From: Shinella sp. H4-D48
GTDB taxonomy: Bacteria; Pseudomonadota; Alphaproteobacteria; Rhizobiales; Rhizobiaceae
DNA: 64,000 nucleotides
Direction of reading: 5' to 3'
Assembly: GCF_022637395.1 (NCBI RefSeq)
Contig: NZ_CP093339.1
Location: 248,001-312,000, forward strand
The position numbers and the translations under genes were made by a program. The notes under the pieces are model-generated. The model ran no database searches. It was not told the origin of the DNA and worked only from the letters and a program-made list of their open reading frames with translations. Positions 2,001 to 19,264 of the stretch are shown here, piece by piece. Each line of letters begins with the position of its first letter. Within the stretch, counting starts at the first letter, position 1.

Positions 2001-2909
2001 ATGACTGTCGACCTGCACGGGATCATTCCAGCACTCGTGACCCCTTTCGATGCGGATGGCGAAATCAACGAACGGCTGTTTCGCGACCATGTGCGTTTTA
2101 TCCTGAACAAGAACGTGCACGGCGTTTGTCTGGCGGGCAGCACGGGCGAGGGCTTCACCTTCTCGCCGGCAGAACTGCGCCAGCTGACGGCTGCGACCGT
2201 GGAAGAAGTCAACGGCAAGGTTCCTGTCGTCGCCGGCATCATCGCCAACAGCACGCGTGAGGTCATCGAGCGCGCCAATGCGGTCAAGGATCTCGGCGTC
2301 GCCGCGCTCCAGGTCACCCCGACCTACTACGTCTTCAACTATGGCGAAGAAGCCATGTTCCAGTATTTTAAGCAGATCTGGGAAGAGACCGGTATTCCGC
2401 TTGTCATCTACAACGTGATTCCGTGGAACCTCCTCGGTGCCGATCTGGTCGTGCGGATGATGGAGGAGATTCCGGGCGTCATCGGCATCAAGCAGAGCCA
2501 GGGCAACATTTCCCGCGCTGCCGAACTCGTCATCCGCGCGCCGAAGGGAAAGTCCATCCTCGCGGCCATCGACGATCTTCTCTATCCCTGCTTCATGATG
2601 GGTGCGCAGGGCACGCTGGCCGCTTCGCCGACAGCGGCACCCGGTCCTTGCGTCGCGCTGTGGAACGCCGTAAAGGCCGGCGATCACGACCTGGCGCGCA
2701 AGATTCACGATCGTCTCGTCATTTTCTGGCACCTGATGGGACATGAGAACCTGCCGGCCCTGGTGAAATACTGCCTCGAGCTTCAGGGCTGCGAGGTGGG
2801 CATTCCGCGCCATCCGATGCCGCTGGCTTCCGCAGAGCAGAAGGCGAAGATCCGGCCCGCGCTCGAAGCGCTTCTCCAGTTCGACCCGCAACTCGCCAAG
2901 GCAGCGTGA
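2001..2909 (+). CDS. DapA superfamily lyase/aldolase (class I, Schiff base)
   Basis: The 302-residue TIM-barrel enzyme belongs to the dihydrodipicolinate synthase / N-acetylneuraminate lyase superfamily. Visible are the GSTGEG loop (residues 46-51), Tyr137 in VIYNV and the Schiff-base Lys164 in GIKQSQG. The motif after the Tyr reads YNVIPW, not the Arg-containing form of true lysine-pathway DapA, so a catabolic 2-oxo-acid aldolase or dehydratase is more likely. ATG 2001 is chosen over an in-frame codon at 1980 because GGAGAGGAG precedes it by 10 bases. It heads the ABC-importer operon, suggesting that it acts on the imported compound or its oxidised form. The exact substrate is not readable. 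Confidence 0.88.
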   Translation: MTVDLHGIIPALVTPFDADGEINERLFRDHVRFILNKNVHGVCLAGSTGEGFTFSPAELRQLTAATVEEVNGKVPVVAGIIANSTREVIERANAVKDLGVAALQVTPTYYVFNYGEEAMFQYFKQIWEETGIPLVIYNVIPWNLLGADLVVRMMEEIPGVIGIKQSQGNISRAAELVIRAPKGKSILAAIDDLLYPCFMMGAQGTLAASPTAAPGPCVALWNAVKAGDHDLARKIHDRLVIFWHLMGHENLPALVKYCLELQGCEVGIPRHPMPLASAEQKAKIRPALEALLQFDPQLAKAA

Positions 2910-2913
2910 GGCA

Positions 2914-2975
2914 AAGCCGCGCGGAGAAGGGTGCGGCTTGCTAGGCATGGTCCCGGGCACAGGCGTGGCCGGGAC
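2914..2975 (+). promoter_or_regulatory. Two intergenic hairpins before the binding-protein gene
   Basis: The gap between the lyase and the binding-protein gene holds two stems: AAGCCGC/GCGGCTT (2914-2920 / 2933-2939) and GTCCCGG/CCGGGAC (2950-2956 / 2969-2975). Neither has a T-tract. They are more likely to be mRNA stability or processing elements that set a higher level of binding protein than to be terminators. Confidence 0.5.
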
Positions 2976-3029
2976 AGGAGGAAAAGCCGCCGGGTGTATC
3001 CGGCATGTTGATATTCTGGGAGGAATTCT

Positions 3030-4412
3030 ATGAAACGTGATGACAGAACCGCTGCGGAAACCGCTGCATCCGCCGGCCTTTTCCGGCGCGATGTGCTGAA
3101 GTTCGCCCTTGCCGGCTCCGCCCTGGCGGCCGTCGGTCTGCGTGCGCCGGCCGTGCTCGCGAATGCAAAACCCTTCGAGGGTGTCACCCTGCGTGGCGCA
3201 TGCTTCCAGCACATCTTCCACACCTATATCCAGAAGCTGCTGCCCGAGTTCGAAGAACAGACGGGCATGAAGGTCGAGTTCGATCTGCAGGCTTTCCCGG
3301 TCTACAACCAGCGCATGGACCTCGAACTGTCCACGCATGGTTCGAGCTATGACTTCTGCAACATCACCCACTCGTTCTCCGGCCGCTGGATCAGCGCTGG
3401 CTGGCTGACACCGCTGAACGACTTCCTCAACGATCCCAACAAGACGGCCGCAGACTTCGATCCGGACGATTTCGTCAGCGGCACGCAGATCGCCTATATC
3501 GATGCGAACAAGCAGCTTCACGGCTTCGCCTGGGAAGCCGGCGCCATGCTGCTGGCCGCCTCGCGCTTCGATATTCTCGACAAGGAAGGCATCGCCATGC
3601 CGACCACGCTTGCCGGCATGATCGATGTCTGCAAGGCGATCCACAACAAGAACGGTGTCGCCGCCTTCGTGGCGGATCGCCTGCATCACTGGAACTTCCC
3701 GCCCTACCTGATGGGCTTCGGCGGCAAGGTCTTCCGCGATCCGCCGCGCGACCTGATGCCGGTGCTCGACACGCCCGAAGTGATTGAGGCGGCAACCTAC
3801 TATTCCGAGCTGCTTTCCAATTACTGCCCGCCGGGCGTGCTGTCCTACACGGACGACCAGGCGATGCGCAATCAGCTGGCGGGCCGGGCGAACATGCGCA
3901 TCAACGCCATGTCGTGGCTGCTGCCTCTGGCGAAATCAGACGATTCCCGCGTCAAGGACACGGTGCGTTTCGCGCTGATGCCGGAAGGCCCGGCCGGCGG
4001 CTTCCCTGCCTGCAACGCCAATGCCTACGGCATTCCGGCTGGCTCTAACCAGAAGGACGCCGCCTGGGCGTTCATCCAGTGGGCGACATCGAAAAAGACC
4101 TTCGAGCGCACCGCGCTGGAAATGGGCGGGCTTGCGACCCCGCGTCGTTCGATCATCGAGGATCCTCGCTACAAGGAGGCGCTGACGATCAACGGTCAGG
4201 ACATCGCCTCGATGTATCTCGACGTTCTCGAGCGCAGCGGCCGGGAAGGCTATATGGCCTATCGTACCGTGCCCATCTGGCCGCAGACCGGTGAGAAGAT
4301 CAACAAGGCGATCGAGCGCATCGCCAGCGGGCAGGCCGACGCGGCCACCTCAATGAAAGCCGCCCAGGCGGAAGCAGTCGAGGACATCAAGAAAGCGGGC
4401 GTCAAGTTGTGA
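3030..4412 (+). CDS. ABC importer solute-binding protein, family 1, Tat-exported
   Basis: The 460-residue protein starts with a twin-arginine signal (FRRDVLKFALAG, about residues 23-34) followed by a hydrophobic stretch and a cleavage region near APAVLANA. Folded export to the periplasm by Tat is therefore expected. The rest resembles family 1 extracellular binding proteins used for sugars, oligosaccharides and glycerol phosphates (LLPEFEEQTGMKVEFDLQAF near the start). GGGAGGAATTCT precedes the ATG. It overlaps the first permease gene by 4 bases (GTGA). The ligand is unknown; the neighbouring lyase suggests a sugar acid or related compound. Confidence 0.9.
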   Translation: MKRDDRTAAETAASAGLFRRDVLKFALAGSALAAVGLRAPAVLANAKPFEGVTLRGACFQHIFHTYIQKLLPEFEEQTGMKVEFDLQAFPVYNQRMDLELSTHGSSYDFCNITHSFSGRWISAGWLTPLNDFLNDPNKTAADFDPDDFVSGTQIAYIDANKQLHGFAWEAGAMLLAASRFDILDKEGIAMPTTLAGMIDVCKAIHNKNGVAAFVADRLHHWNFPPYLMGFGGKVFRDPPRDLMPVLDTPEVIEAATYYSELLSNYCPPGVLSYTDDQAMRNQLAGRANMRINAMSWLLPLAKSDDSRVKDTVRFALMPEGPAGGFPACNANAYGIPAGSNQKDAAWAFIQWATSKKTFERTALEMGGLATPRRSIIEDPRYKEALTINGQDIASMYLDVLERSGREGYMAYRTVPIWPQTGEKINKAIERIASGQADAATSMKAAQAEAVEDIKKAGVKL

Positions 4413-5380
4413 GCGCGGTCGATGTGGAAAACCGGCGCCGCGACGTCGCGGTCAATGCGGTAGGCCATGCAGCGAAGGCGGGGAAAACCCCCGCCTTCGA
4501 GCGCCAGCGCCAGCGTTTCTTTTGGCTGCTTCTGGCGCCGGTCCTTGCCATCCTTGCCGTCGTCACGCTGCTGCCGACACTTTATCTGCTGGTGACGAGC
4601 TTCACCCCGCTCAACCTCGCCAACCCGGCGACGGCGTGGGACTTTTCCGATCCGCTGGTCAACTATCGCACGCTTTTGACCGATGACCGGCTGCACAACA
4701 GCTTCTGGGTGCAGGCGAAGCTGTCGGTGGTGACGGTGGTGCTTCAGCTTCTGTTCGGTCTCGTCGTCGCATTGCTTCTCAACATGAGAACGCCGCTGAT
4801 GAACGCGCTTCGAACCTCGTTTCTCGTGCCGATGGTCTTGCCGCCCATCGTGGTGGCGATCATCTGGAAGGTGCTCTACTCGCCCGACATCAGCCCGGCC
4901 TGGTGGCTTTTCCAGCTTCTCGGCTGGAACGTGCAGACACCGATCACCGATGCCAGTTGGGCGCTGACAGCGATCATTGTGGCGGACACCTGGGAATGGT
5001 TTCCCTTCACCATGATCATCATCCTGGCGGCGCTTGCCATGATGCCGGAGGAGCAGCGCGAGGCGGCGGAAGTCGACGGTGCCAGCATCTGGCAGCTCAC
5101 ATGGTACATCACGCTGCCCTATCTCAAGGGCACGCTGCTGGTCGCGGGGCTTTTCCGGCTCATCGACAGCATCAAGACCTTCCCGCTCATCTACATTCTC
5201 ACCGATGGCGGACCCGGCTCGGTTACCGAAGTCTCGAACTACTACATCTTCGTCCAGTCCTTCAGCTTCAGCTATATCGGCTATTCCGCCGCCGTCACCA
5301 TGGTGCTGCTTGCCATGATCGTCGTTCTGAGCTGGGTCATCATCCGTGCGGTTTCGGGAGGCTCGAATGCCCAGGAGTAA
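4409..5380 (+). CDS. ABC importer inner-membrane permease, MalF type
   Basis: The 323-residue binding-protein-dependent permease starts at a GTG that overlaps the binding-protein stop. About six membrane segments are visible, the first at FWLLLAPVLAILAVVTLLP. The cytoplasmic EAA loop (EAAEVDGASIWQ, then the LP pair) contacts the ATPase. A 30-residue charged N-terminal tail precedes the first helix. It pairs with the next permease to form the translocation channel. Confidence 0.92.
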   Translation: MSAVDVENRRRDVAVNAVGHAAKAGKTPAFERQRQRFFWLLLAPVLAILAVVTLLPTLYLLVTSFTPLNLANPATAWDFSDPLVNYRTLLTDDRLHNSFWVQAKLSVVTVVLQLLFGLVVALLLNMRTPLMNALRTSFLVPMVLPPIVVAIIWKVLYSPDISPAWWLFQLLGWNVQTPITDASWALTAIIVADTWEWFPFTMIIILAALAMMPEEQREAAEVDGASIWQLTWYITLPYLKGTLLVAGLFRLIDSIKTFPLIYILTDGGPGSVTEVSNYYIFVQSFSFSYIGYSAAVTMVLLAMIVVLSWVIIRAVSGGSNAQE

Positions 5381-6206
5381 GCTCGACGCGGCCGCGCGCC
5401 GCAACCGTATCCTGGCGAACACGATCGTCATCGCACTTGCGATCATCACCCTGCTGCCGTTCCTCTGGTTCGTCGTGATGAGTTTCAAGCCGGCGGACGA
5501 CATCTTCGCGGGCATTGACGGCTTCTTCTTTACCCCGACGCTCGAAAACTACACGTCGCTGTGGAACGACCGGTTTGCGGGATCGATGCTCAACAGCTTC
5601 ATCACGAGTTCGGTATCGACGATCCTGGCGCTCGTCATCGGCACGCCGGGTGCCTATGCGCTCTCACGGGCGACGATGAAGCAGGAGCGGACCTTCTCGC
5701 TGCTCATTCTCGCCTCGCGCATGGCCCCGCCGGTCGCCTTCGCGATCCCGTATTTCCTCGTCTACCGCTACATGGGCCTGCTCGACACCCGCACTGGCCT
5801 TATCCTGGTCTATCTCACGTTCAACTTGGCGCTCGTCGTCTGGCTGATGCGCAACTTTTTCGATGCCACGCCGCGTGCGCTCGAAGAAGCGGCGTGGATC
5901 GACGGGGCGAGCCTGTGGAAGACGTTCATGGTCATCGTCCTGCCGATGTCGGGTCCGGCGCTCGTTACGACGGCGATCCTATGCTTCCTCTATTCGTGGA
6001 ACGACTTCTTCTTCGCGCTGACCCTGACGCGAAACAACGCCATGACCGCTCCGGTGGAGGTGGTCAACTTCATGAACTACGAGGGCTGGGAGTGGGGCAA
6101 GATAGCGGCCGGCGGCACGCTGATCATGGTGCCGGTTCTCGCCTTCTCGCTCCTGATGCGCAAATACCTCGTCGCGGGAATGACGGCGGGTGCGGTCAAG
6201 GGCTGA
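5367..6206 (+). CDS. ABC importer inner-membrane permease, MalG type
   Basis: The 279-residue protein is the second channel subunit, with about six membrane segments and an EAA loop reading [17 protein letters not shown] 5367 is chosen over an upstream in-frame GTG at 5346 because GGGAGG ends 5 bases before it. It overlaps the previous gene by 14 bases. The typical MalG opening ([20 protein letters not shown]) and the proline-rich FKPADDIF segment are present. Confidence 0.92.
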
Positions 6207-6232
6207 TCAGAAATCTTTGGGAGGAATACGCA

Positions 6233-7291
6233 ATGAACGGCGTTCGAATTGAAGGCGTTCGCAAGGCTTACGGCGCGCTGGATGTGCTGCACGGCATCGA
6301 CATCGATATCGAGGACGGCGAGTTCGTCACCCTGGTCGGCCCCTCGGGCTGCGGAAAATCAACGCTCCTGCGGATGATCGCGGGCCTGGAGACGATCAGT
6401 GACGGGACGATCAACATCGCCGGCCGCGTCGTCAACGAGGTGGCGCCGAAAGACCGCGACATCGCAATGGTCTTCCAGAACTATGCGCTGTATCCGCACA
6501 TGACGGTGGCGCAGAACATGGGCTTCTCGCTCAAGCTGCGCGGCGTCGATGCACTGAAGATCAAGTCTGCCGTCGAGGCGGCGGCCGAGATCCTCGACCT
6601 GTCGAAACTTCTGGAACGCTATCCCAAGCAGCTCTCCGGCGGTCAGCGCCAGCGTGTCGCCATGGGGCGCGCCATCGTGCGCGATCCGGAAGTCTTTCTC
6701 TTCGACGAGCCGTTGTCGAACCTCGACGCGAAGCTGCGCGTGCAGATGCGCTCGGAGATCAAGGGGCTGCATCAGCGCCTGAAGACCACCACCATCTACG
6801 TCACCCACGACCAGATCGAGGCGATGACGATGGCCGACAAGATCGTCGTCATGCGCGACGGGCGTGTCGAGCAGGTCGGCAAGCCGCTCGATCTTTATGA
6901 CCGACCGGCCAATCTCTTTGTGGCCGGCTTCATCGGCTCGCCCTCGATGAATTTCCTGCCGGCGACGATGAGCGCGGGCAGCGTGCGGATGGCTGACGGC
7001 ATCGCGCTGCCGGCCGGTGCGCGTGCTGATGCGGGCAATGCACCGCAACAGGTCATGTACGGCATTCGTCCCGAGCATATCGCGGTTGCAGCCGAAGGCA
7101 TTCCCGCCACGGTCTCGCTTGTCGAGCCGACCGGCGCCGAGACGGTCCTTTCTTTCGCGATCGGGAAGGAAACGCTGACTGCCGTCGTGCGCGACCGGTT
7201 GTCCGTTCAGCCGGGAGACCAGGTGTTTCTTCAATTCCAGCAAGGTGCCGAACACCTTTTCGATGCGGCGAGCGGTGCCCGTCTGGCCTGA
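6233..7291 (+). CDS. ABC importer ATPase, MalK/UgpC type
   Basis: The 352-residue ATPase energises the preceding importer. Visible are Walker [10 protein letters not shown] (residues 36-44), the Q-loop in [10 protein letters not shown], the signature [14 protein letters not shown], Walker [13 protein letters not shown], the switch His in VTHDQIEAM, and a C-terminal TOBE region with [14 protein letters not shown] lies 11 bases before the ATG. The frame is open for several hundred bases upstream, but that part overlaps the permease out of frame and is not coding. MalK-type ATPases can be shared among importers, so it may serve more than one system. Confidence 0.94.
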
Positions 7292-7340
7292 GGCGGAAAC
7301 CGAAATCGGAGGGAAAAGGCGATGCGGTCGGCGGGAGGAA

Positions 7341-7391
7341 TTGACAGTAAATTATATGTCCATTATTCAGACATCATGTCCGCATAATGGA
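7341..7391 (+). promoter_or_regulatory. Promoter with a 33-bp palindromic operator, copy 1
   Basis: TTGACA (7341-7346), a 17-base spacer and TATTCA (7364-7369) make a good sigma-70 promoter. A 33-bp palindrome at 7359-7391, centred on 7375, overlaps the -10 box and ribosome-binding site. Its outer arms are TCCATTAT and ATAATGGA and its core is GACATcATGTC; 14 of 16 base pairs match. The same element occurs at 15253-15285. Repression by an IclR protein made in this region is the simplest reading. Confidence 0.65.
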
Positions 7392-8308
7392 GAATATGAT
7401 GAGCGCAGGTCCGCAGTTCTTTGGCGTCATTCCGCCCACCACCACACCCTTTGACGCCGAAGGCAACATCCTTTTCGACGACTTCCGGGCCCAGGTCCGC
7501 TTCATGGTCGATTCCGGCGTGCATGGCCTGTGCGTCGGCGGTTCGTCCGCCGAGGGCCACACGCTGGAAATGGGCGAACTGCAGGCGCTCCTGGAAACGG
7601 CCGCCGAGACGCTCGACGGCAAGCTGCCGCTGATCGCCGGCGTCATCATCAACTCCACCCGCCAGGCGGTCGACCGCTGCAAGATGGCGGCGCGTGCCGG
7701 CTCCGTCGCCCTTCAGGTGACGCCGCCGCATTACGTGTTCCGTCCGTCCGACGATGCCATCGTCGATCACTTCCGGGCGATCGCCGAAGAGAGCGGCCTG
7801 CCGGTCCTCATCTATAACGTCGTTCCCTGGTGCTATCTCAATCCTGCGCTTCTCATCCGCATCATGCGCGAAATCCCCGGCGTCATCGGCGTCAAGCAGA
7901 GCAACGGCGACCTGAAGCTGCTGGCCGATCTTCTGCAGGAAATCCCCGAGGGCAAGCTGGTGTTCACGGCTGTCGATGCGCTGCTCTATTCGAGCTTTGC
8001 GCTGGGCGCGCACGGCACGATCGCCGCCAATCCGGCGGCTGCCCCCGTTGCCGTGGTCAAGCTGTGGGATCTCGTCCAGGCGGGTCGTCATGACGAGGCG
8101 CTTGCACTGCACCGCAAGCTCCTGACGTTCTGGAACGCGCTGATCTGCGACGATCTGCCGGCGTGCATCAAATATGCCCAGTCGCTGCAGGGCGTGCCGC
8201 TGGCCCTGCCGCGCGCGCCGATGCGCATGCCCGACGAGGCCCGCAAGCGCCGCATCGCCGATGCCTTCGCAGCCATCAACGGTGCGGAGCGCGCCGCGGC
8301 GTGAGTGA
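7355..8308 (+). repeat. 954-bp direct repeat, copy 1 (operator plus lyase gene)
   Basis: This stretch aligns without gaps to 15249-16202 at a constant offset of 7894 bases. Identity begins abruptly at TATGTCC upstream of the operator and ends just after the stop (GTGAGTGA). About 22 substitutions fall in the 906-bp gene and none was seen in the roughly 44 bases upstream of the start codon. No insertion-sequence ends or target-site duplications were seen at the borders. Confidence 0.9.
7399..8304 (+). CDS. DapA superfamily lyase/aldolase, duplicated copy 1
   Basis: The 301-residue class I aldolase-fold enzyme has Tyr139 in LIYNVVPW and Schiff-base Lys166 in GVKQSNG. The loop that reads GTTGE in true DapA is GSSAEG here, and the carboxylate-binding Arg is absent (VPW), so lysine synthesis is unlikely. 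Three ATGs cluster at 7387, 7396 and 7399; 7399 is 6 bases from GGAG and is preferred. It is the first gene of the TRAP/FAD-oxidase/DhaKL operon. The other copy at 15293 differs only at residues 28, 31 and 38 (Asp/Ala, Ala/Thr, Asp/Glu). Likely a 2-oxo-acid aldolase or dehydratase; the substrate is unknown. Confidence 0.88.
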   Translation: MSAGPQFFGVIPPTTTPFDAEGNILFDDFRAQVRFMVDSGVHGLCVGGSSAEGHTLEMGELQALLETAAETLDGKLPLIAGVIINSTRQAVDRCKMAARAGSVALQVTPPHYVFRPSDDAIVDHFRAIAEESGLPVLIYNVVPWCYLNPALLIRIMREIPGVIGVKQSNGDLKLLADLLQEIPEGKLVFTAVDALLYSSFALGAHGTIAANPAAAPVAVVKLWDLVQAGRHDEALALHRKLLTFWNALICDDLPACIKYAQSLQGVPLALPRAPMRMPDEARKRRIADAFAAINGAERAAA

Positions 8309-8408: not shown

Positions 8409-9419
8409 ATGTTTCGCATCAACCGTTTCAAGGTCACGGCAGCCGCGGCTTTATTCTTTGCGGGTCTCGCTGCGTCGAGTGTCACCGCTGCCGATCTTCG
8501 CGCCGGCACCAGCATGGCCGCCAACCATCCGTCTGCGCAGGTGCTGACCAAGCTTTCCGAACTGGTCAAGGAAAGAAGCAACGGCAATCTCAACATCACG
8601 GTCTATACCGACGGCACGCTCGGCAATGACGGGCAGATGCAGCAGCAGGTGCAGTCCGGCACGCAGGATATTTCCACGGCCAACGCCGCAGGTCTGGCGG
8701 CTCAGGTCAAGGAAATGGCCGTGGTAGAGTTCCCGTTCATTTATCGCAATTCGGATGAATTCTACACTGTTCTCGGTGGCGAGATGGGCAAGGAGCTGGC
8801 CGACAAGCTCTACGAGAAGGGCTGGGTCGCGCTCGGCTTTTCGCATAACGGCTTTCGCCATGCCACCAACAGCAAGCATCCCATCGAGAAGTGGGAGGAT
8901 TTCGCAGGCTTGAAGATCCGCGTCATCCCCAATGCGATGTATATCGACATGTTCTCCGCGCTCGGCGCCAATCCGACGCCGATGCCGGTCTCCGAAGTCT
9001 ATGCCGCGCTCGAGACCGGTGCGGTGGACGCGCAGGAGGCGCCTTTCGCGCAGATCAACGCCATGCGCATCTTCGAAGTGCAGAAGTACATGAGCACGAC
9101 CGGCCATGCCGTGAACTCCGAAGTCATCATCCTGAGCCGCAAGACCTATGACGCGATGTCGCCGGAAGACCAAAAGCTCGTTGTCGAGGCGGGCAGGGAT
9201 GCCGTGGAATGGAAGCGCCAGCAGTTCCAGGAAATGGAGGCCGGGCTCGCAAAGGCCATCGAAGAGGGCGGCATGACGATCAACGCGGTCGAGCCCGCCG
9301 AACTCGCCCGCATGGCCGAGAAGATGCAGCCCGTCATCGAGAAGCATGCCGAACTTGCCGGCAAGGACTTCACCGAGCGTTACATCAAGGCCATCGAGGC
9401 CGGCCGCACCGGCAACTGA
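8409..9419 (+). CDS. TRAP transporter solute-binding protein, DctP family
   Basis: The 336-residue periplasmic receptor has a Sec signal peptide (hydrophobic residues about 10-26, cleavage near VTAAD). The DctP-family core is GLKIRVIPNAMYIDMFSALG, whose Arg typically holds the ligand carboxylate, followed by VYAALETGAVDAQEAPF. ATG 8409 follows GGGAGGGAAGC. The upstream open frame overlaps the hairpin region and is not coding. TRAP receptors usually bind carboxylates, consistent with an acid as substrate of this module. Confidence 0.93.
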   Translation: MFRINRFKVTAAAALFFAGLAASSVTAADLRAGTSMAANHPSAQVLTKLSELVKERSNGNLNITVYTDGTLGNDGQMQQQVQSGTQDISTANAAGLAAQVKEMAVVEFPFIYRNSDEFYTVLGGEMGKELADKLYEKGWVALGFSHNGFRHATNSKHPIEKWEDFAGLKIRVIPNAMYIDMFSALGANPTPMPVSEVYAALETGAVDAQEAPFAQINAMRIFEVQKYMSTTGHAVNSEVIILSRKTYDAMSPEDQKLVVEAGRDAVEWKRQQFQEMEAGLAKAIEEGGMTINAVEPAELARMAEKMQPVIEKHAELAGKDFTERYIKAIEAGRTGN

Positions 9420-9427
9420 CGGGAGAG

Positions 9428-9448
9428 GGGCGGGCTAGGCGCCCGCCC
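9428..9448 (+). promoter_or_regulatory. Hairpin between TRAP binding-protein and small-permease genes
   Basis: GGGCGGGC (9428-9435) and GCCCGCCC (9441-9448) make a perfect 8-bp stem with a 5-nt loop, 9 bases after the binding-protein stop. Only two T residues follow, so it is a weak terminator or 3' stabiliser that would favour the binding protein over the membrane subunits. Confidence 0.55.
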
Positions 9449-9468
9449 TTGATCCCCGGGGACAACGC

Positions 9469-10026
9469 ATGCGTATCGTCGACCTTCTGTTCCGCTTCTT
9501 CGAGTTCGTGCTCGTCGTGCTCCTGACCGCCATGGTGGTCATGGTGTTCGGCAATGTCGTTCTGCGGTACGCCTTTAATTCGGGCATAACCGTTTCCGAG
9601 GAACTGTCCCGCTTCGCCTTCATATGGCTGGCCTTTATCGGCGCGGTCGTGGGCGTGCGGGACCGCGCCCATCTGGGAGCCGATTTTGTCGTCAACGCGC
9701 TGCCGCCGGCGGCCCGCAAGGTCTGCTTTCTCCTGTGCTCCGGTCTGATCATCTGGAGTGCGTCGCTGATCTTCATCGGCACGTTCCGTGGCCATGCCAT
9801 CAATATGGAGAACTACTCTCCGGTGATGGGCATACCGATGGAGTATGTCTATGCCTCGGCCTACGTCCTTTCGATCGGCATTATCGCCCTGACCGTTGCG
9901 CGTCTCTACCAGTTCGCGACCGGGAAACTCAGCAACGCGGAACTGTTCGCAGCCGTTGATCCCGAAGAGGCGATGGCGCTCGAAACCAACGTTTCCGGCC
10001 AGAATTCCAGCGAGACAAAACGATGA
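9469..10026 (+). CDS. TRAP transporter small permease, DctQ family
   Basis: The 185-residue inner-membrane protein has four predicted helices. The first is FFEFVLVVLLTAMVVMVFGNVVLRY, ending in the conserved NVVLRY motif. EELSRFAFIWLAFIGAVVGVRD, typical of DctQ, follows. It ends in a hydrophilic tail. Its stop overlaps the DctM start (ATGA), so the two membrane subunits are translationally coupled. It forms the transporter with the large permease and DctP. Confidence 0.92.
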   Translation: MRIVDLLFRFFEFVLVVLLTAMVVMVFGNVVLRYAFNSGITVSEELSRFAFIWLAFIGAVVGVRDRAHLGADFVVNALPPAARKVCFLLCSGLIIWSASLIFIGTFRGHAINMENYSPVMGIPMEYVYASAYVLSIGIIALTVARLYQFATGKLSNAELFAAVDPEEAMALETNVSGQNSSETKR

Positions 10027-12723: not shown

Positions 12724-13716
12724 ATGAAGAAACTGATGAATGCGCCGGGTGATTTCGTCGATCAGGCGCTCGACGGCTTGACGCTCGCCAACCCGTCCCT
12801 GGTGCGGGACGGCGAAAGCGGTCGTGTCATTCGCCGGGCCGAAGGCATTCGCAAGGGCAAGGTCGGCATCGCCTCGGGCGGCGGTTCCGGTCATTTGCCG
12901 CTGTTCACCGGCTATGTCGGCCGTGGTCTGCTGGATACCTGCTCCATCGGAAACGTGTTCGAGGGGCCGAATGTCGGCTCGTGCATGGATGCCATCCGCC
13001 TTGCCGATGGCGGCCGCGGGGTCCTGCGCCTCTACGGCAACTACGGCGGCGACCGCATGAATTTCGACATGGCGGGCGAAATGCTGGAGGATGAGATTCG
13101 CACGACGACGGTGCTCGGCAACGACGATATCGCGAGCGCCCCGCCGGAGGAGAGCGCAAAGCGGCGCGGCGTTGCGGGCATCATCTATGCCTACAAGATC
13201 GCCGGCGCGAATGCTGAAACCGGCGCCGACCTCGATGAAGTGACGGCAATCGCGGCGAAGGCCGTGGCCTCCACCCGCACCATCGGCGTCTCGCTTTCGC
13301 CATGCCAGGTGCCGGGCTCGGCAAAACCGACCTTCGAGATCGCCGATGACGAGATCGAAATGGGCATGGGCATCCACGGCGAACCCGGCATCTGGCGCAA
13401 CAAGCTGCGTCCGGCGGACGAGATCGCCGACGAGATGGTGCAGCGGCTGCTGGCCGAAGCGCCCGGCAATGCGGGCTCGGAGGTCTCCGTCCTCGTCAAC
13501 GGCCTCGGCGCGACGCCGCTGGAGGAACTCTTCATCCTTTATCGTCGTGTGGCGGAGAAGCTCGGCGAGAGCGGCTTGCGCATCGTCCAGCCGCTGGTCG
13601 GGAATTATGTCACCTCAATGGAAATGGCAGGAGCGTCCATCAGCCTCTGCTTCCTGGACGACGAAATGAAGGGCCTGCTGGCTGCGCCGGCCGAATGCCC
13701 ATTTTGGAGGGTATGA
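12724..13716 (+). CDS. dhaK: Dihydroxyacetone kinase-type substrate subunit, DhaK family
   Basis: The 330-residue protein contains the DhaK fold and catalytic His218 in MGMGIHGEPG, at the same number as in E. coli DhaK, where it binds dihydroxyacetone covalently as a hemiaminal. SGGGSGHLPLFTGYVGRG and NYGGDRMNFDMA match the family. Substrate-loop positions differ from E. coli (FEGPNVGSCMDAI), so another short-chain ketose such as erythrulose is possible. It starts 1 base after the oxidase stop and overlaps dhaL. No PTS-type dhaM is present, so with DhaL it is probably an ATP-dependent kinase. Confidence 0.88.
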   Translation: MKKLMNAPGDFVDQALDGLTLANPSLVRDGESGRVIRRAEGIRKGKVGIASGGGSGHLPLFTGYVGRGLLDTCSIGNVFEGPNVGSCMDAIRLADGGRGVLRLYGNYGGDRMNFDMAGEMLEDEIRTTTVLGNDDIASAPPEESAKRRGVAGIIYAYKIAGANAETGADLDEVTAIAAKAVASTRTIGVSLSPCQVPGSAKPTFEIADDEIEMGMGIHGEPGIWRNKLRPADEIADEMVQRLLAEAPGNAGSEVSVLVNGLGATPLEELFILYRRVAEKLGESGLRIVQPLVGNYVTSMEMAGASISLCFLDDEMKGLLAAPAECPFWRV

Positions 13717-14336
13717 TGAGCACTTTCGATATTCAGGATGTAAAACGCACTGTCGCGATGGCGGCCACGGCCATGACCGTCCTCGAACAGGAGCTGAATG
13801 CGGCCGACGCGAAGCTGGGCGACGGCGATACGGGCGGCATGCTGGCGCGCGTCATCGGGGCGCTCGATAACGCATCCCTGCCCGACGGTGGGGATGTCGG
13901 CGCGGGTTTCTCCGCCTATGCCAAGGCGGCCGCAATGGCGACGGGTTCGAGCCTCGGAACGCTTCTGGCGACGGCGCTGATGACGTTTGCCAGGGAAACG
14001 AAAGGGCGCGCCGAGGTGCCGGTCGCGGAACTCGGCGACCTGCTCGCCAAGGCGCGTGATGCGATGATGGCGCGCGGCGGCGCCAATCTCGGCGACAAGA
14101 CCATTCTCGATGCGCTCGATGCAGTCGCAAAGGCTATTTCCGGCATCGACAGTGCCCAAGAGGCGCGATCGAAAGCGGTGGCGGCCTCGGGCGAGGCGCT
14201 GGATCAGTTCCGCCAGAAACCGAACAAGGTCGGCAGGGCACGCATGTTCGCCGATGCCACCATCGGCATGGACGATCCGGGCATGCTGGCCTTCGCGCGG
14301 CTTTGCGCCGCGGTGGCCGGGCCTGGGGCGCAGTAA
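13716..14336 (+). CDS. dhaL: Dihydroxyacetone kinase-type nucleotide subunit, DhaL family
   Basis: The 206-residue all-helical protein binds Mg-nucleotide through DAKLGDGDTG (residues about 29-38); GSSLGTLLATALM and GGANLGDKTILDAL complete the DhaL pattern. In PTS-dependent systems it keeps bound ADP that is rephosphorylated by DhaM; without DhaM it is expected to exchange ATP. The frame could begin at ATG 13713 or 13716; 13716 is better spaced from GGAGGG. The start overlaps the DhaK stop, so the subunits are coupled. It phosphorylates the ketose held by DhaK. Confidence 0.88.
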   Translation: MSTFDIQDVKRTVAMAATAMTVLEQELNAADAKLGDGDTGGMLARVIGALDNASLPDGGDVGAGFSAYAKAAAMATGSSLGTLLATALMTFARETKGRAEVPVAELGDLLAKARDAMMARGGANLGDKTILDALDAVAKAISGIDSAQEARSKAVAASGEALDQFRQKPNKVGRARMFADATIGMDDPGMLAFARLCAAVAGPGAQ

Positions 14337-14418: not shown

Positions 14419-15222
14419 ATGACTACCCAAAACCGGGAAAGGGATGCAGACCGCAATTCCAGCCAGATGCTTTCCTTCTCGAAAATGCTCTCCGTGCTGG
14501 ACTGTTTTTCGCGGGATGACCGTTCGCTGACGGTGCTGGAGATATCCAGGCGCACCAAGCTGCCGCGCACGACGGTTCACCGCATCGTCGCTTCCCTGAA
14601 GGCATTGGGCCTCATCGATCAGGACCGGGACCGGGAGAAATACCGGCTCGGTCTGAAGCTCTTCGAACTCGGCAATACGGTGCTGGCCAACATGGATGTG
14701 CAGCGCGAGGCCAGCGAAAGCATGGCGACCCTTGTCAACAAGACCGGCCAGTCGGTGCATCTCGGCGTGTTCGACGGGTTCGAAATCGTTATGGTCGAGC
14801 GGGCCGATTCAAAGGTCGGCCAGCTCAACCGTGTCGTAACGCTGGAGAGCGCGGCGGCCTATTGCAGCGCAACCGGCAAGGCCGCCCTGGCGTTCCAGCC
14901 GCAATCCGTCGTGGATCGCATCATCCAGCACGGTTTTACGGCACTGACGCCCAACACCATTACCAGCGGCAAGCAGCTGATGGATGAACTCGAATTGATC
15001 CGCACGCGCGGCTACTCGATCGATGACGCGGAATATGAGGAGTGGCGTCGCTGCGTCGCCGCACCCATCCGCAATGCGACCGGGCGCGTCTTCGCGGCAA
15101 TCAGTGTGACCGGCAAGAAGGAAGAGTTCACGGATGCGACCATCCGGCAATACGCATCGCTCGTCATCGCGCAGGCCGACCAGATTTCCCGTCGGCTTGG
15201 CTATGAGCGCGAGCAAGATTGA
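14419..15222 (+). CDS. IclR family transcriptional regulator
   Basis: The 267-residue regulator has a winged HTH (about residues 20-80, LTVLEISRRTKLPRTTVHRI) and an IclR effector domain (CSATGKAALAFQ, AAISVTGKK). It is a clear paralogue of the regulator at 1013-1795: both contain the RLGL(R/K)L-type linker followed by LGNxxLANMD. It sits at the end of the TRAP/DhaKL operon and directly before the second lyase copy, so it is the best candidate to bind the palindromes at 7359 and 15253. A modest GAGGAGCC lies about 11 bases before the ATG. Confidence 0.9.
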   Translation: MTTQNRERDADRNSSQMLSFSKMLSVLDCFSRDDRSLTVLEISRRTKLPRTTVHRIVASLKALGLIDQDRDREKYRLGLKLFELGNTVLANMDVQREASESMATLVNKTGQSVHLGVFDGFEIVMVERADSKVGQLNRVVTLESAAAYCSATGKAALAFQPQSVVDRIIQHGFTALTPNTITSGKQLMDELELIRTRGYSIDDAEYEEWRRCVAAPIRNATGRVFAAISVTGKKEEFTDATIRQYASLVIAQADQISRRLGYEREQD

Positions 15223-15234
15223 GGGTGAAAAGGC

Positions 15235-15285
15235 TTGACGCTCCACCGTATGTCCATTATTCAGACATCATGTCCGCATAATGGA
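15235..15285 (+). promoter_or_regulatory. Promoter with a 33-bp palindromic operator, copy 2
   Basis: TTGACG (15235-15240), a 17-base spacer and TATTCA (15258-15263) mirror the promoter at 7341. The 33-bp palindrome at 15253-15285 is base-for-base the same as the first copy. The spacer upstream of TATGTCC has diverged, but the -35 box is kept at the same distance. That argues for functional selection or recent copying of the operator. Confidence 0.65.
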
Positions 15286-16202
15286 GAATATGATGAGCGC
15301 AGGTCCGCAGTTCTTTGGCGTCATTCCGCCCACCACCACCCCCTTTGACGCCGAAGGCAACATCCTCTTCGACGCCTTCCGCACCCAGGTCCGCTTCATG
15401 GTCGAGTCCGGCGTGCATGGCCTGTGCGTCGGCGGTTCGTCGGCCGAGGGCCACACGCTGGAAATGGGCGAACTGCAGGCGCTCCTGGAAACGGCCGCCG
15501 AGACGCTCGACGGCAAGCTGCCGCTGATCGCCGGCGTCATCATCAACTCCACCCGCCAAGCGGTCGACCGATGCAAGATGGCGGCGCGTGCCGGCTCCGT
15601 CGCCCTTCAGGTGACGCCGCCGCATTACGTGTTCCGTCCCTCGGACGATGCCATCGTCGATCACTTCCGGGCGATCGCCGAAGAGAGCGGCCTGCCGGTC
15701 CTCATCTATAACGTCGTTCCCTGGTGCTATCTCAATCCTGCGCTTCTCATCCGCATCATGCGCGAAATCCCCGGCGTCATCGGCGTGAAGCAGAGCAATG
15801 GCGACCTGAAGCTGCTGGCCGATCTTCTGCAGGAGATCCCCGAGGGCAAGCTGGTGTTCACGGCTGTCGATGCGCTGCTCTATTCGAGCTTTGCGCTGGG
15901 CGCGCACGGCACGATCGCCGCCAATCCGGCGGCTGCCCCCGTTGCCGTGGTCAAGCTTTGGGATCTCGTCCAGGCGGGCCGCCACGACGAGGCGCTTGCG
16001 CTGCACCGCAAGCTCCTGACGTTCTGGAACGCGCTGATCTGCGACGATCTGCCGGCCTGCATCAAATATGCCCAGTCGCTGCAGGGCGTGCCGCTGGCCC
16101 TGCCGCGCGCGCCGATGCGCATGCCCGACGAGGCCCGCAAGCGCCGCATCGCCGATGCCTTCGCCGCCATCAACGGCGCGGAGCGCGCCGCGGCGTGAGT
16201 GA
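15249..16202 (+). repeat. 954-bp direct repeat, copy 2 (operator plus lyase gene)
   Basis: Second copy of the 7355-8308 segment, same orientation, 7894 bases downstream, with no gaps. Homologous recombination between the copies would remove the TRAP, oxidase, DhaKL and IclR genes as a circle and leave one lyase copy in front of the TTT importer. Confidence 0.9.
15293..16198 (+). CDS. DapA superfamily lyase/aldolase, duplicated copy 2
   Basis: The 301-residue near-duplicate of the enzyme at 7399 has the same Tyr139 and Schiff-base Lys166 and only three residue changes, all between residues 28 and 38 (Ala28, Thr31, Glu38 here). Start ATG 15293 is chosen by spacing from GGAG. It heads the TTT importer operon. 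Most nucleotide differences are silent third-position changes, so the copy is under protein-level selection and not decaying. Function as for copy 1: probably cleavage or dehydration of a 2-oxo acid, substrate unknown. Confidence 0.88.
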   Translation: MSAGPQFFGVIPPTTTPFDAEGNILFDAFRTQVRFMVESGVHGLCVGGSSAEGHTLEMGELQALLETAAETLDGKLPLIAGVIINSTRQAVDRCKMAARAGSVALQVTPPHYVFRPSDDAIVDHFRAIAEESGLPVLIYNVVPWCYLNPALLIRIMREIPGVIGVKQSNGDLKLLADLLQEIPEGKLVFTAVDALLYSSFALGAHGTIAANPAAAPVAVVKLWDLVQAGRHDEALALHRKLLTFWNALICDDLPACIKYAQSLQGVPLALPRAPMRMPDEARKRRIADAFAAINGAERAAA

Positions 16203-16209
16203 TATGAGG

Positions 16210-16235
16210 CCGCCGGCATCGGAGGTTGCCGGCGG
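16210..16235 (+). promoter_or_regulatory. Hairpin between lyase copy 2 and tctC-like gene
   Basis: CCGCCGGCA (16210-16218) and TGCCGGCGG (16227-16235) form a perfect 9-bp stem with an 8-nt loop. It occupies the same place as the hairpin after lyase copy 1 but is unrelated in sequence, suggesting an independently acquired element with the same job before a binding-protein gene. Confidence 0.5.
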
Positions 16236-16285
16236 TCTCCAAACATACCGGAGCATCCGCTTCACCACATCAAAGGGAGGATATC

Positions 16286-17266
16286 ATGACAGACCGTACT
16301 CGCACGTTTTCTCGCTATGCCGCAGGCTTCCTCATGGCGGGCAGCCTGCTTTCTGCGTCCGCTGCCATGGCCGAGTGGCCCGAGCGACCCGTGACGCTTG
16401 TCGTCGTGGCCGGTGCCGGCGGCGGCAGCGACTACACGATGCGTCTTCTCGGCGCTGAGCTGGAAGCAGCCCTCGGCAAGCCCTTCACCATCGTCAACCA
16501 GGCGCAGGCCTCGGGTATCGTCGGCTACACGACCTATACCAGCGCAGCGGCCGATGGTTATACACTCGGCCAGCTTTCCCCCATCGCGCAGTTCAAGCTG
16601 CTTGGGCAGGCGAACTTCACGCCGGACAATTTCACGGCTATTGCCCAGTTCAACGCCGACCCGTCCGCTATTCACGTCGCCAAGGATTCCGAGATCACGG
16701 ACATGAAGGCGCTCGTCGAGATCCTGAAGGCGGATCCGGGCAAGCTCAAGATTTCCTGCGGCGGTTCCTGCAATGCGAGCTGGGACATCCCCTTCGTTTC
16801 GATGCTGCTCGATCAGGGTGTCGATGTGACCAAGCTGAACCTCATCCCAGGACCGGGGTCTGCCGCAGCCCTGCAGGAACTGGCCGCAGGCGGCGTGGAC
16901 GTCGTTCTGTGCTCGATCCCCGAAACCACCGCTCTTGCCGAGGCCGGCATCGTGCGTAGCGTCGCGGTCATGAGCGAAGAACGTATTGCGATCGATGACA
17001 GCATTCCGACCGTCAAGGAGCAGCTCGGCAAGGCCTATGTCGGCGGTACCTGGCGCGGCATCGGCGGCCCGGCCAACATGGATCCGGCCCTTGTCACGAA
17101 AATCGAAGGCGCGATCAAGCAGGCTGTCGAGAGCGAAAAGTTCAAGACGGGCATGGAAGCGCGCGGCTTCGGCGTGGCGTGGCTTGACCATGCCGCCTTC
17201 ACCGCTTTCCTCGACAGCCATTTCGAGGAAACCACGAAGGTCATCAACGCTCTCAAGGGGCAGTAA
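16286..17266 (+). CDS. Tripartite tricarboxylate transporter binding protein, TctC/Bug family
   Basis: The 326-residue periplasmic receptor has a Sec signal (hydrophobic residues about 10-28, cleavage near AMAEW). The Bug-family opening WPERPVTLVVVAGAGGGSD and the loop VNQAQASGIVGYTTY are visible. Bug proteins bind carboxylates through main-chain atoms and water. ATG 16286 follows GGGAGGATATC. With the next two genes it forms a complete TTT system. Confidence 0.93.
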   Translation: MTDRTRTFSRYAAGFLMAGSLLSASAAMAEWPERPVTLVVVAGAGGGSDYTMRLLGAELEAALGKPFTIVNQAQASGIVGYTTYTSAAADGYTLGQLSPIAQFKLLGQANFTPDNFTAIAQFNADPSAIHVAKDSEITDMKALVEILKADPGKLKISCGGSCNASWDIPFVSMLLDQGVDVTKLNLIPGPGSAAALQELAAGGVDVVLCSIPETTALAEAGIVRSVAVMSEERIAIDDSIPTVKEQLGKAYVGGTWRGIGGPANMDPALVTKIEGAIKQAVESEKFKTGMEARGFGVAWLDHAAFTAFLDSHFEETTKVINALKGQ

Positions 17267-17285
17267 TCCCGAGGAGATCGCCGAT

Positions 17286-17771
17286 ATGGTGAAGTTTCAC
17301 GACCGGCATCTGGGCGTGGTGATGGTGGTGCTTGGCGCTGCCATCACCGGCCTCGCCATGGTCCTGCCGGGGCCGATTACCGGGGCACATATCGCCTATG
17401 GTCCCGGCTTCTTCCCATCGCTGCTCGGCGTGGCTACCATGCTGGCGGGGCTGGCGCTGGCCATTCGTGGCCCCCAGGCGGACACGGATAGCGATGCGTC
17501 CGATGCAGAAGCCAAGGGCAGGCCCCGGTTCGTCGCCCCGCTTCTCGTTCTCGGTTCGATGCTCGCCTATGTCTATCTGAGCGACACGGTCGGCTTTCTT
17601 CCGATAAGCCTGGTCATTCTCGTGGTGCTCCTGATGGTCGGCGGCATGCGGTTCGTCTCCGCGCTTCTGCTGTCGCTTGCCACGAGCATCACAATCTATC
17701 TCCTCTTTTCAAAGGTGCTGATGGTACCGCTTCCGCGCGGCCTGCTTCAGCCCTGGGCAATCTGGCTATGA
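17286..17771 (+). CDS. Tripartite tricarboxylate transporter small membrane subunit, TctB family
   Basis: The 161-residue inner-membrane protein has four predicted helices (VMVVLGAAITGLAMVLPG, SLLGVATMLAGLALAI, LLVLGSMLAYVYLSD and the C-terminal pair). It matches TctB in size and topology. ATG 17286 is preceded by GAGGAGATCGCC; the longer open frame upstream overlaps tctC out of frame. Its stop overlaps the TctA start (ATGA). Confidence 0.85.
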   Translation: MVKFHDRHLGVVMVVLGAAITGLAMVLPGPITGAHIAYGPGFFPSLLGVATMLAGLALAIRGPQADTDSDASDAEAKGRPRFVAPLLVLGSMLAYVYLSDTVGFLPISLVILVVLLMVGGMRFVSALLLSLATSITIYLLFSKVLMVPLPRGLLQPWAIWL

Positions 17772-19264
17772 TGGTACATATCCTGTCGGCGGCGTCCGAA
17801 CTGTTTTCGCCCTATGTGATGGCGGTCATTTTCGGTAGCGCCGTCTTTGGCCTGTTCATCGGCGCCATTCCCGGCCTTACCGCCACCATGGCGACGGCTC
17901 TGCTCGTGCCCATCACGTTCTATATGGACCCGGTGCCGGCCGTTGCCGCCATGGTCACCGCGTCGGCTATGGCAATGTTTGCCGGCGATATTCCCTCCGC
18001 GCTGCTTCGCATGCCGGGCACGCCGGCTTCCGCCGCCTATACCGACGATGCCTTCGCCTTGACGAAAAAGGGCATGGCACATGTTTCCCTCGGCATCTGC
18101 CTGCTGACCTCGGCCATCGGCGGGATCTTCGGTGCCCTCGTTCTCTCCGCGTTCGCGCCGCCGCTGGCATCGCTCGCGCTGAAATTCAGCAGTTTCGAAT
18201 ATTTCTGGCTGTGCCTGCTGGGCCTGACGACATCCGCCTTCATCATGCAGGGCTCGCCGATCAAGGGCATCATCTCACTCTCCCTCGGCCTTTTCGTCTC
18301 GACCATCGGCATCGATCCTGTAAGCGGCGTGCCGCGTTTTACCTTCGGCGCGCCCTCGCTCATCGGCGGCGTCTCGCTCGTGCCGGTCATGATCGGGGTT
18401 TTCGCGGTGGCCGAAATCTTGCGCTTCTACGCGCATCGCAATCCCAAACTGGCGCTGGAACAGGTCGAACTGAAGGGCGTGTTTACGGGGCAGGGGCGTA
18501 TCCTGTGGCGCGAGCGCAAGGCGATCGCGCAGGGCAATGTGCTTGGAACGCTCATCGGCATCGTGCCGGGCGCGGGCGCCGATATCGCCGCCTGGATCTC
18601 CTATTCGGTGGCCAAGAAGTTTTCGCGCAAGCCGGAAGAATACGGCCGCGGCTCTGAAGAAGGCCTTGCGGCGGCGGGCGCCGCCAACAATGCAGCCGTC
18701 AGTGGCGCCTATATCCCCGCGCTTGTCTTCGGCATTCCCGGCGATGCCATCACGGCCATTGTAATCGGCGTGCTCTTCATGAAGGGCGTCAATCCGGGAC
18801 CGACGATCTTCCTCAACAATCCGTCCACGGTCTACGGCATCTTCATGGCGTTCCTTGTCGCCAACCTCTTGATGATTCCGCTCGGATGGGTGGCGATCCG
18901 CTGTGGCCGCGTAATCCTGAAGGCGCGGCTCTCCATCCTCATGCCGATCATTCTCGTTTTTTGCATGGTCGGGTCGTTTGCCGTCGACAACACGGTAGCG
19001 GCCGTCGGTGTGGCGCTCGCTTTCGGCGTCATCGGCTACTTTATGGAAGAGGCCGGCATTCCCATCGCCCCCTTCGTTCTCGGCATCGTACTGGGCCCTC
19101 TGGTCGAGCAGAACTTCCTGACGTCGATGATGAAATCGGGTGGGTCTTTCGTTGCCTTCTTCGACCGGCCGATTGCGGCGGGGTTGGCGCTTGTGACAAT
19201 CATGATCTGGTTGTCGCCGCTGCTCGCGTTCTGGCGGCGCCGCAAACTGGTAGACCAAGCGTGA
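17768..19264 (+). CDS. Tripartite tricarboxylate transporter large membrane subunit, TctA family
   Basis: The 498-residue channel subunit has about eleven or twelve helices. Characteristic stretches are AIPGLTATMATALLVP, the first half of a duplicated motif, and IGIVPGAGADIAAWISYSVA, the second half. It is coupled to TctB and ends the operon; nothing of the same operon follows before the diguanylate-type gene at 19473. Confidence 0.94.
   Translation: MMVHILSAASELFSPYVMAVIFGSAVFGLFIGAIPGLTATMATALLVPITFYMDPVPAVAAMVTASAMAMFAGDIPSALLRMPGTPASAAYTDDAFALTKKGMAHVSLGICLLTSAIGGIFGALVLSAFAPPLASLALKFSSFEYFWLCLLGLTTSAFIMQGSPIKGIISLSLGLFVSTIGIDPVSGVPRFTFGAPSLIGGVSLVPVMIGVFAVAEILRFYAHRNPKLALEQVELKGVFTGQGRILWRERKAIAQGNVLGTLIGIVPGAGADIAAWISYSVAKKFSRKPEEYGRGSEEGLAAAGAANNAAVSGAYIPALVFGIPGDAITAIVIGVLFMKGVNPGPTIFLNNPSTVYGIFMAFLVANLLMIPLGWVAIRCGRVILKARLSILMPIILVFCMVGSFAVDNTVAAVGVALAFGVIGYFMEEAGIPIAPFVLGIVLGPLVEQNFLTSMMKSGGSFVAFFDRPIAAGLALVTIMIWLSPLLAFWRRRKLVDQA

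What the first reader, a model, noticed from the sequence alone, without database searches (positions are those of the whole stretch)
2001..19264. Three lyase-plus-importer modules, each with a different transporter class
Three DapA-superfamily lyase genes each head an operon with a different uptake system: ABC (3030-7291), TRAP (8409-11300) and TTT (16286-19264). Two IclR paralogues, a FAD oxidase and DhaKL kinase subunits are mixed in. Seen directly: gene order and families. Inference: one regulon collects a group of related carboxylates or sugar acids through three energetically different importers and channels them through interchangeable lyases. I do not know of a described pathway with this exact set.
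Basis: partly seen in the sequence, partly recalled or inferred. Interest (0 to 1): 0.7.

Follow-up and report, generated by a model that had tools for sequence, protein, structure and literature searches.

The report
Sugar-acid lyase cluster with duplicated lyase
A soil bacterium carries neighbouring gene sets that probably import related hydroxy acids and split them into pyruvate plus a three-carbon sugar, and the splitting enzyme in front of two different importers is almost the same gene twice, kept alike together with its control switch.

Summary
The gene order is real: three PF00701 lyase genes, three importer types (MalK-type ABC, TRAP, TTT), two IclR regulators, an FAD dehydrogenase, DhaK and DhaL. 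Two points change the picture. (1) Lyases 2 and 3 are one enzyme twice (22 of 918 bases differ). The copied block is operator plus lyase gene; in 4 of 5 genomes with this layout the pair is more alike within than between genomes: concerted evolution. (2) TRAP and TTT operons share a double operator seen at only these two places in the genome, so they look like one regulon; the ABC module has its own IclR and lacks it. In relatives, three lyase subfamilies are linked to DhaK kinases while importers and the oxidising step vary; Shinella oryzae has all three side by side. Most likely working (inferred): an LDHD-like enzyme oxidises D-2-hydroxy acids to 4-hydroxy-2-oxo acids; the lyase gives pyruvate plus dihydroxyacetone or glyceraldehyde; DhaKL phosphorylates the triose. 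The substrate is unknown. I found no description of this gene set in the open-licence library.

The parts
1013..1903 (-). IclR1 regulator (ORF; probable GTG start at 1795)
   Evidence: PF01614 127.6 bits and PF09339 55.8 bits; 43% identical to IclR2
1870..1886 (+). candidate IclR1 operator GTCCCAAAAAATGAGAC (weak evidence)
   Evidence: seen by eye in three Shinella loci; one exact match in the genome; not above chance at 3 mismatches in the window
2001..2909 (+). Dap1, DapA-superfamily lyase, heads the ABC operon
   Evidence: PF00701 191 bits; tree subfamily I
3030..4412 (+). ABC solute-binding protein (SBP_bac_1)
   Evidence: 96.4 bits, cut-off 26
4409..5380 (+). ABC permease 1 (best match UgpA, below its cut-off)
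5367..6206 (+). ABC permease 2 (best matches GlcU/MalG, below their cut-offs)
6233..7291 (+). ABC ATPase (UgpC/MalK type)
   Evidence: NF008653 497 bits, cut-off 432
7355..7393 (+). double IclR2-type operator over promoter 1: TGTCCATTATTCAGACA at 7357-7373 and an inverted second site at 7377-7393, 20 bp apart; TTGACA box at 7341-7346
7387..8304 (+). Dap2 lyase, heads the TRAP operon; duplicated block is 7355-8308
8409..9419 (+). DctP, TRAP solute-binding protein
   Evidence: TIGR00787 238.8 bits, cut-off 175; nearest solved chain 4p47
9469..10026 (+). DctQ, TRAP small permease
   Evidence: YiaM-like, 98 bits, below cut-off 260
10023..11300 (+). DctM, TRAP large permease
   Evidence: TIGR00786 479 bits, cut-off 268; YiaN-like
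11310..12722 (+). FAD-linked dehydrogenase, LDHD-like (D-2-hydroxyacid type)
   Evidence: 475 bits to mouse LDHD chain 8jdc; site residues
12724..13716 (+). DhaK, dihydroxyacetone-kinase-type substrate-binding subunit, GSGHLP/GNVFEGP subtype
13713..14336 (+). DhaL, ATP-binding subunit
   Evidence: below curated cut-offs
14419..15222 (+). IclR2 regulator (BhcR/KdgR-like, below curated cut-offs)
15249..15287 (+). second copy of the double IclR2-type operator
15281..16198 (+). Dap3 lyase, 302 of 305 aa identical to Dap2, heads the TTT operon; duplicated block is 15249-16202
16286..17266 (+). TctC, TTT solute-binding protein
   Evidence: 110.9 bits, cut-off 27
17286..17771 (+). TctB
   Evidence: 74.6 bits, cut-off 29.1
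17768..19264 (+). TctA
   Evidence: 437 bits, cut-off 28.9

Best explanation
A multi-entry catabolic funnel for polyhydroxy 2-hydroxy/2-oxo acids. Shown from sequence: three lyase-headed gene runs; two of them carry the same lyase and the same exclusive double operator. Inferred: TRAP and TTT bring in related hydroxy or oxo acids; the LDHD-like flavoenzyme oxidises the D-2-hydroxy form to a 4-hydroxy-2-oxo acid; the class I lyase (Schiff-base Lys, no DHDPS Arg) splits it into pyruvate plus dihydroxyacetone or glyceraldehyde; DhaKL phosphorylates the triose for glycolysis; IclR2 switches both operons together. The ABC module feeds a second lyase of the same linked group under its own regulator, IclR1. 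The operator-plus-lyase block was copied so that a second importer came under the same control, and gene conversion keeps the copies alike.
For: In the window the duplicate block is bounded by operator and stop codon; concerted evolution, with all upstream copies held together rejected at p-AU 6e-7. Operator: 4 of the 6 genome hits at up to 3 mismatches lie at these two promoters, two each. DhaK within 11 kb of the lyase in 6 of 7, 14 of 14 and 8 of 9 rows of three subfamilies, and 0 of 59 in the sister group. Two unlike DhaK types occur with the lyases. A PLP aminotransferase sits beside the lyase in S. oryzae, S. meliloti and Shinella PSBB067. FAD enzyme: 5 of 5 catalytic-subsite residues kept in the window protein and its 4 orthologues, hydrophobic subsite changed V101L, W351Y, S365G, I407G/A. 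A 52%-identical FAD enzyme lies directly before a lyase in L022 too. DhaK motifs GSGH, NYGGD and GIHGEPG kept.
Against: No substrate, product, binding or expression was measured. DhaK type varies (FEGP against FTSP), so the kinase substrate may differ between clusters. DctP has Ala where its nearest solved relatives have Asn in the (Q/A)EN motif, so sugar-acid binding is uncertain. Mouse LDHD rejects hydrophilic side chains. L022 has FAD enzyme plus lyase without DhaK, with Ile and Met instead of Gly and Gly in subsite B, so lyase and kinase are not always paired. The ABC module is not seen in the fetched stretches of three of the five genomes with the TRAP/TTT pair and lacks the shared operator. 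Only 10 of the 79 lyase loci have DhaK in the stretch; the link is confined to the three subfamilies and L052. L101 and L104 came from a DhaK search alone and are not independent evidence for the link. The promoter scan did not list the lyase promoters.
Confidence: 0.5

Rival explanations
1. Modules 2 and 3 form one pathway, but module 1 (IclR1, Dap1, ABC) is an unrelated pathway that happens to lie next to them on a replicon rich in sugar-catabolism genes.
For: Own IclR and no IclR2 operator; the TRAP/TTT cluster occurs without it in the fetched stretches of L015, L095 and L096.
Against: In Shinella PSBB067 a Dap1 (85%) with IclR1 (75%) lies beside an aminotransferase, a fused DhaKL and another lyase; Dap1 is in a DhaK-linked subfamily (branch support 94, unstarred); same order in S. 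oryzae.
Confidence: 0.3
2. The lyase-family proteins are not aldolases here but dehydratases or deaminases of a 3-deoxy-2-oxo acid, and DhaKL phosphorylates an imported keto-sugar independently.
For: PF00701 includes such enzymes (KdgD model listed; others recalled); DhaK relatives of the wider subfamily occur without any lyase; L022 has FAD enzyme and lyase but no DhaK.
Against: DhaK linkage holds across three lyase subfamilies with two kinase types; a ThDP enzyme of the acetolactate-synthase type stands in the place of the lyase in 4 of 16 loci with the same DhaK subtype.
Confidence: 0.2
3. The twin lyase is a plain recent duplication or assembly artefact without functional meaning.
For: 97.6% identical at DNA level.
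Against: 22 differences, 20 at third codon positions; the same layout in four other genomes, three of them outside Shinella; different flanks on each side.
Confidence: 0.03

Closest known systems
DapA/NAL superfamily pyruvate lyases (PF00701: DHDPS, N-acetylneuraminate lyase, KDG aldolase)
   Same: Family score, Schiff-base Lys in a KQS motif, Tyr in YNV, GS(T/S)xEG motif (roles of the residues recalled)
   Different: Scores below the curated DapA and NanA cut-offs; the Arg of DHDPS (YNIPGR in the own DapA) is absent, PW stands there; shared YNVxPW signature
Sialic acid catabolic operons (TRAP or ABC importer + NanA lyase + kinase; recalled)
   Same: Logic: importer, pyruvate lyase, kinase for the second product
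   Different: DhaKL-type kinase, LDHD-like oxidation step, duplicated operator-lyase block, several importers
Azospirillum and S. meliloti pSymA lyase-DhaK-IclR clusters (public records; generic gene names only)
   Same: Lyase + DhaK(L) + IclR
   Different: Importers by the Dap2-like lyase are TTT (Azospirillum) or amino-acid ABC (pSymA); pSymA has an aminotransferase beside the lyase and no FAD enzyme in the stretch
Mouse LDHD, D-2-hydroxyacid dehydrogenase (PMC10589216, passages read)
   Same: 5 of 5 catalytic-subsite residues
   Different: Hydrophobic side-chain subsite differs at 4 of 4 positions, one conservatively (Val to Leu)

Membership tests
DHDPS (biosynthetic DapA) | NCBIfam TIGR00674 cut-off 206.15 bits | tested here: not met
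   160.5, 149.1 and 152.5 bits
DHDPS (biosynthetic DapA) | Arg after YNxP (Arg138 in E. coli, recalled) | tested here: not met
   Own chromosomal DapA has YNIPGR; Dap1-3 have YNVxPW
N-acetylneuraminate lyase | NCBIfam TIGR00683 cut-off 382 bits and NF003164 cut-off 281 | tested here: not met
   106-131 bits
PF00701 class I lyases | Family score and catalytic Lys/Tyr | tested here: met
   180-191 bits, cut-off 22.1; residues
Dihydroxyacetone kinase (DhaK) | Motifs GSGH, NYxGD, GIHGEPG (roles recalled) | tested here: met
Dihydroxyacetone kinase (DhaK) | NCBIfam TIGR02363 cut-off 406.25 bits | tested here: not met
   364.4 bits
Dihydroxyacetone kinase (DhaK) | Phosphorylates dihydroxyacetone | not testable with these tools
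   needs an enzyme assay
LDHD-type D-2-hydroxyacid dehydrogenase | Arg347, His398, His405, Glu442, His443 | tested here: met
LDHD-type D-2-hydroxyacid dehydrogenase | Hydrophobic subsite Val101, Trp351, Ser365, Ile407 | tested here: not met
   Leu, Tyr, Gly, Gly
GlcD glycolate oxidase | TIGR00387 cut-off 567.9 bits | tested here: not met
   308.9 bits
TRAP transporter | DctP, DctQ and DctM together | tested here: met
   (DctQ only by a model below its cut-off, and by position)
TTT transporter | TctA, TctB and TctC together | tested here: met
Hexuronate-binding TRAP SBP | Two Arg and one Asn coordinating the acid (PMC7660916, passages read) | tested here: not met
   Arg in GFRH and KIRV present; Asn of the EN motif is Ala (the mapping of these residues to the paper's is my inference)

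The most novel reading that the evidence does not exclude
An undescribed convergent pathway in Alphaproteobacteria in which amino, hydroxy and oxo forms of a branched or 3-deoxy polyhydroxy acid enter through up to four importer classes, meet at one 4-hydroxy-2-oxo acid, and are split to pyruvate and dihydroxyacetone for a dedicated DhaKL subtype; its regulon grows by copying a small operator-plus-lyase block in front of new importers and holding the copies together by gene conversion.
Probability: 0.3. Interest if true: 0.65.

Novelty: new variant of a known kind. Interest (0 to 1): 0.5.

Why it matters
If right, it gives a function to a DapA-family branch (YNVxPW) and a DhaK branch (GNVFEGP) that carry generic names, predicts a new carbon source for rhizosphere bacteria, and offers a natural case of gene conversion preserving an operator together with an enzyme gene, which would be a simple route by which a regulon takes over a second importer.

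Tried and rejected
Neighbourhoods of the roughly 47-55%-identical lyases without DhaK were examined for pathway genes; the nine recurrent neighbours tested by Pfam were PhyH, MFS, alpha/beta hydrolase, epimerase, EamA, TPR, DNA polymerase III beta, RecF-like and HemY, not a shared pathway, and 0 of the 59 sister-group rows has DhaK, so they served as a contrast only (several sit on short contigs). L022 is an exception of interest: FAD enzyme plus lyase.

Hydroxyproline-type deamination was considered for the lyase; none of the neighbours tested by family search supported it. Uronate as ligand was weakened by the Asn-to-Ala change in DctP. The sigma-70 scan did not list the lyase promoters; the TTGAC box is read. 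The IclR1 operator is only suggestive. Literature: searches listed no paper on this gene set (two returned nothing); two searches looked for binding-protein and LDHD papers. This is limited to the open-licence library. Only PMC7660916 and PMC10589216 were opened (passages); the others were seen as search listings. Structure prediction was not used.
Full report
WHAT IS THERE. The window is a stretch of contig 3 (G000:C3:248001-312000) of a 4.77-Mb genome. Three of the genome's six PF00701 genes lie within 14.2 kb. Each is the first gene of a run: Dap1-SBP-permease-permease-ATPase; Dap2-DctP-DctQ-DctM-FAD-DhaK-DhaL-IclR2; Dap3-TctC-TctB-TctA. IclR1 is divergent from Dap1.

TWO LYASES ARE ONE. 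Dap2 and Dap3 differ at 22 of 918 bases, 20 of them at third codon positions, and at 3 of 305 residues. The repeat runs 7355-8308 and 15249-16202: it starts at the operator and ends 4 bases after the stop codon. Four other genomes have the order Dap-TRAP-FAD-DhaK-DhaL-IclR-Dap-TTT: S. oryzae, Neorhizobium galegae, Rhizobium sp. SSA_523, and R. subbaraonis (where the fetched stretch ends in TctB). Within-genome identity of the pair is 97.6 (window), 96.7, 99.2, 98.8 and 84.7%, in that order; between the two Shinella and the other three genomes it is 81.5-83.4%. A DNA tree of 13 rows (10 copies plus 3 outgroups) pairs the two copies of the same genome in 4 of 5 genomes (bootstrap/SH-aLRT 95/93, 92/92, 98/97, 80/81), and holding the five upstream copies together is rejected (p-AU 6e-7). 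In R. subbaraonis the two copies group with different genomes. Gene conversion is the simplest reading; repeated duplication into the same place is less likely. Upstream of the operator the identity falls to 22-50% in all five genomes; downstream of the gene it falls at once in three (window, S. oryzae, R. subbaraonis), while in N. galegae it runs on for about 100 bases and in SSA_523 for about 40.

REGULATION. Both promoters carry TGTCCATTATTCAGACA and, 20 bp on, an inverted second copy with 3 mismatches. In the whole genome, at up to 3 mismatches, there are 6 hits: these four and two others with 3 mismatches each; the reversed-pattern control gives 2. In the window 4 hits are seen against 0.03 expected. 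The double site is present in all 10 promoters of the five genomes (first site 0-1, second site 3-5 mismatches, spacing 20). In single-copy relatives the first site is present before the lyase in 4 of 4 with 0-1 mismatches (L016, L017, L018; L101, after correcting a start that one search had misplaced); a second site is at best weak there (6 mismatches at the same spacing in L018, 7-8 and elsewhere in L016 and L017; not scanned for on the other strand in L101). A related site lies before DhaK with 2, 4, 3 and 5 mismatches (L016, L017, L018, L101). More distant clusters carry ATCCC-N7-GGGAT palindromes before the lyase or transporter (L053, L073, L097, L134). So TRAP and TTT are one regulon by operator evidence; that IclR2 is the protein that binds is inferred from its place. 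The ABC module has no such site; GTCCCAAAAAATGAGAC upstream of IclR1 is a weak candidate.

COMPARATIVE EVIDENCE FOR A PATHWAY. Of 61 genomes examined (own and relatives), 5 have a Dap2-like gene at E <= 1e-40, 2 of 21 in the genus: an accessory trait. Of the 79 lyase loci, 10 have DhaK in the stretch. In a tree of 101 lyase rows (quick method) DhaK lies within 11 kb in 6 of 7 rows of subfamily I (with Dap1; support 94; the seventh, L008, is a short stretch of the same place as L134), 14 of 14 of subfamily II (Dap2/3; support 100), 8 of 9 of subfamily III (S. meliloti pSymA, Devosia, Martelella and others; support 100; the ninth is S. oryzae, whose DhaK is 14 kb off), 1 of 12 other rows (L052), and 0 of 59 of the large, mostly marine sister group. 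Biases: L094-L099 are 6 of 18 plasmid hits opened; L101 and L104 come from a search for DhaK alone; several loci are truncated; L008/L134 and L011/L135 are the same places counted twice. S. oryzae holds subfamilies I, II and III in one 25-kb stretch: amino-acid ABC importer + lyase + aminotransferase, then IclR1-Dap1-ABC, TRAP and TTT modules. In S. meliloti and Shinella PSBB067 a PLP aminotransferase lies by the lyase (the PSBB067 protein scores 485 bits against the 422 cut-off of PRK06108) and the kinase is a fused DhaKL. That it does the job of the FAD enzyme is inference.

CHEMISTRY. The flavoenzyme's best solved relative is mouse LDHD (475 bits). PMC10589216 (passages read) gives subsite A Arg347, His398, His405, Glu442, His443 and hydrophobic subsite B Val101, Trp351, Ser365, Ile407. 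In the window protein and 4 orthologues A is intact (5 of 5 residues) and B reads Leu, Tyr, Gly, Gly/Ala: the D-2-hydroxyacid machinery is kept and the side-chain pocket is changed, possibly roomier. A further relative, 52% identical and directly before a lyase in L022 but with no DhaK in that stretch, also keeps A and reads Leu, Tyr, Ile, Met in B; so the two small residues go with the DhaK-bearing clusters in this small set. LDHD itself rejects hydrophilic side chains, so this is a lead, not proof. The lyases keep Lys and Tyr but lack the DHDPS Arg. DhaK keeps GSGH, NYGGD and GIHGEPG. Its subtype, GNVFEGP, occurs in 16 of 51 rows: 12 with a lyase, 4 with a ThDP-dependent enzyme annotated as acetolactate-synthase-like (the family search was done on the L103 protein, the others by clustering); 10 of the other 35 rows also have a lyase, 9 of them with the FTSP type (one, L133, repeats L099). 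DctP is nearest to the TRAP proteins 4p47, 7bbr and 4n8y (that some of these bind uronates is recalled), but the Asn of the EN motif, present in all 5 alignments shown, is Ala in the window protein and its 4 orthologues, against a standard uronate site (PMC7660916, passages read).

CONCLUSION. Shown: layout, twin lyase, shared exclusive operator, recurrent lyase-DhaK association. Inferred: aldol cleavage to pyruvate plus triose, the kinase step, the regulator-operator match, and a common substrate family. Unknown: the substrate.

Noticed in passing
window 50628-58249: Another lyase/oxidase/importer set with class II chemistry: LysR, amino-acid-type ABC importer, HpcH/HpaI aldolase (54778-55635), FAD oxidase (ORF 55536-57005, 29% identical to the one at 11310), FMN dehydrogenase.
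   Followed up: partly
L022 8406-10870: In a Granulosicoccaceae MAG an LDHD-like FAD enzyme (52%) sits directly before a lyase (50%) with no DhaK in the stretch: a DhaK-free version of the same pair.
   Followed up: partly
window 34658-44935: Rhamnose-type catabolic locus: class II aldolase/SDR fusion, DeoR, sugar-binding protein, ABC genes, FGGY kinase.
   Followed up: no
window 24026-33294: Second DeoR/FGGY/ABC/xylose-isomerase-like sugar locus.
   Followed up: no
G000:C3:325647-329493: Two adjacent DhaK genes about 14 kb beyond the window end, with ribose-type ABC genes.
   Followed up: no
L108-L112: A DhaK subtype (GxVFASP) beside RhaS/Lsr-like ABC genes in all five loci and, in L108, L109, L111 and L112, pyruvate/acetoin-dehydrogenase-type E1 genes; function unclear.
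   Followed up: partly
L100, L102, L103, L106, L113: DhaK/DhaL operons with a ThDP enzyme (PRK06112, 930 bits in L103) and a CoA-transferase-like gene (tested in L113, below cut-off): another unexplained DhaK pathway.
   Followed up: partly
L095 480-4515: A weakly PotD-like ABC importer lies about 3.4 kb upstream of the lyase-TRAP operon in N. galegae.
   Followed up: no
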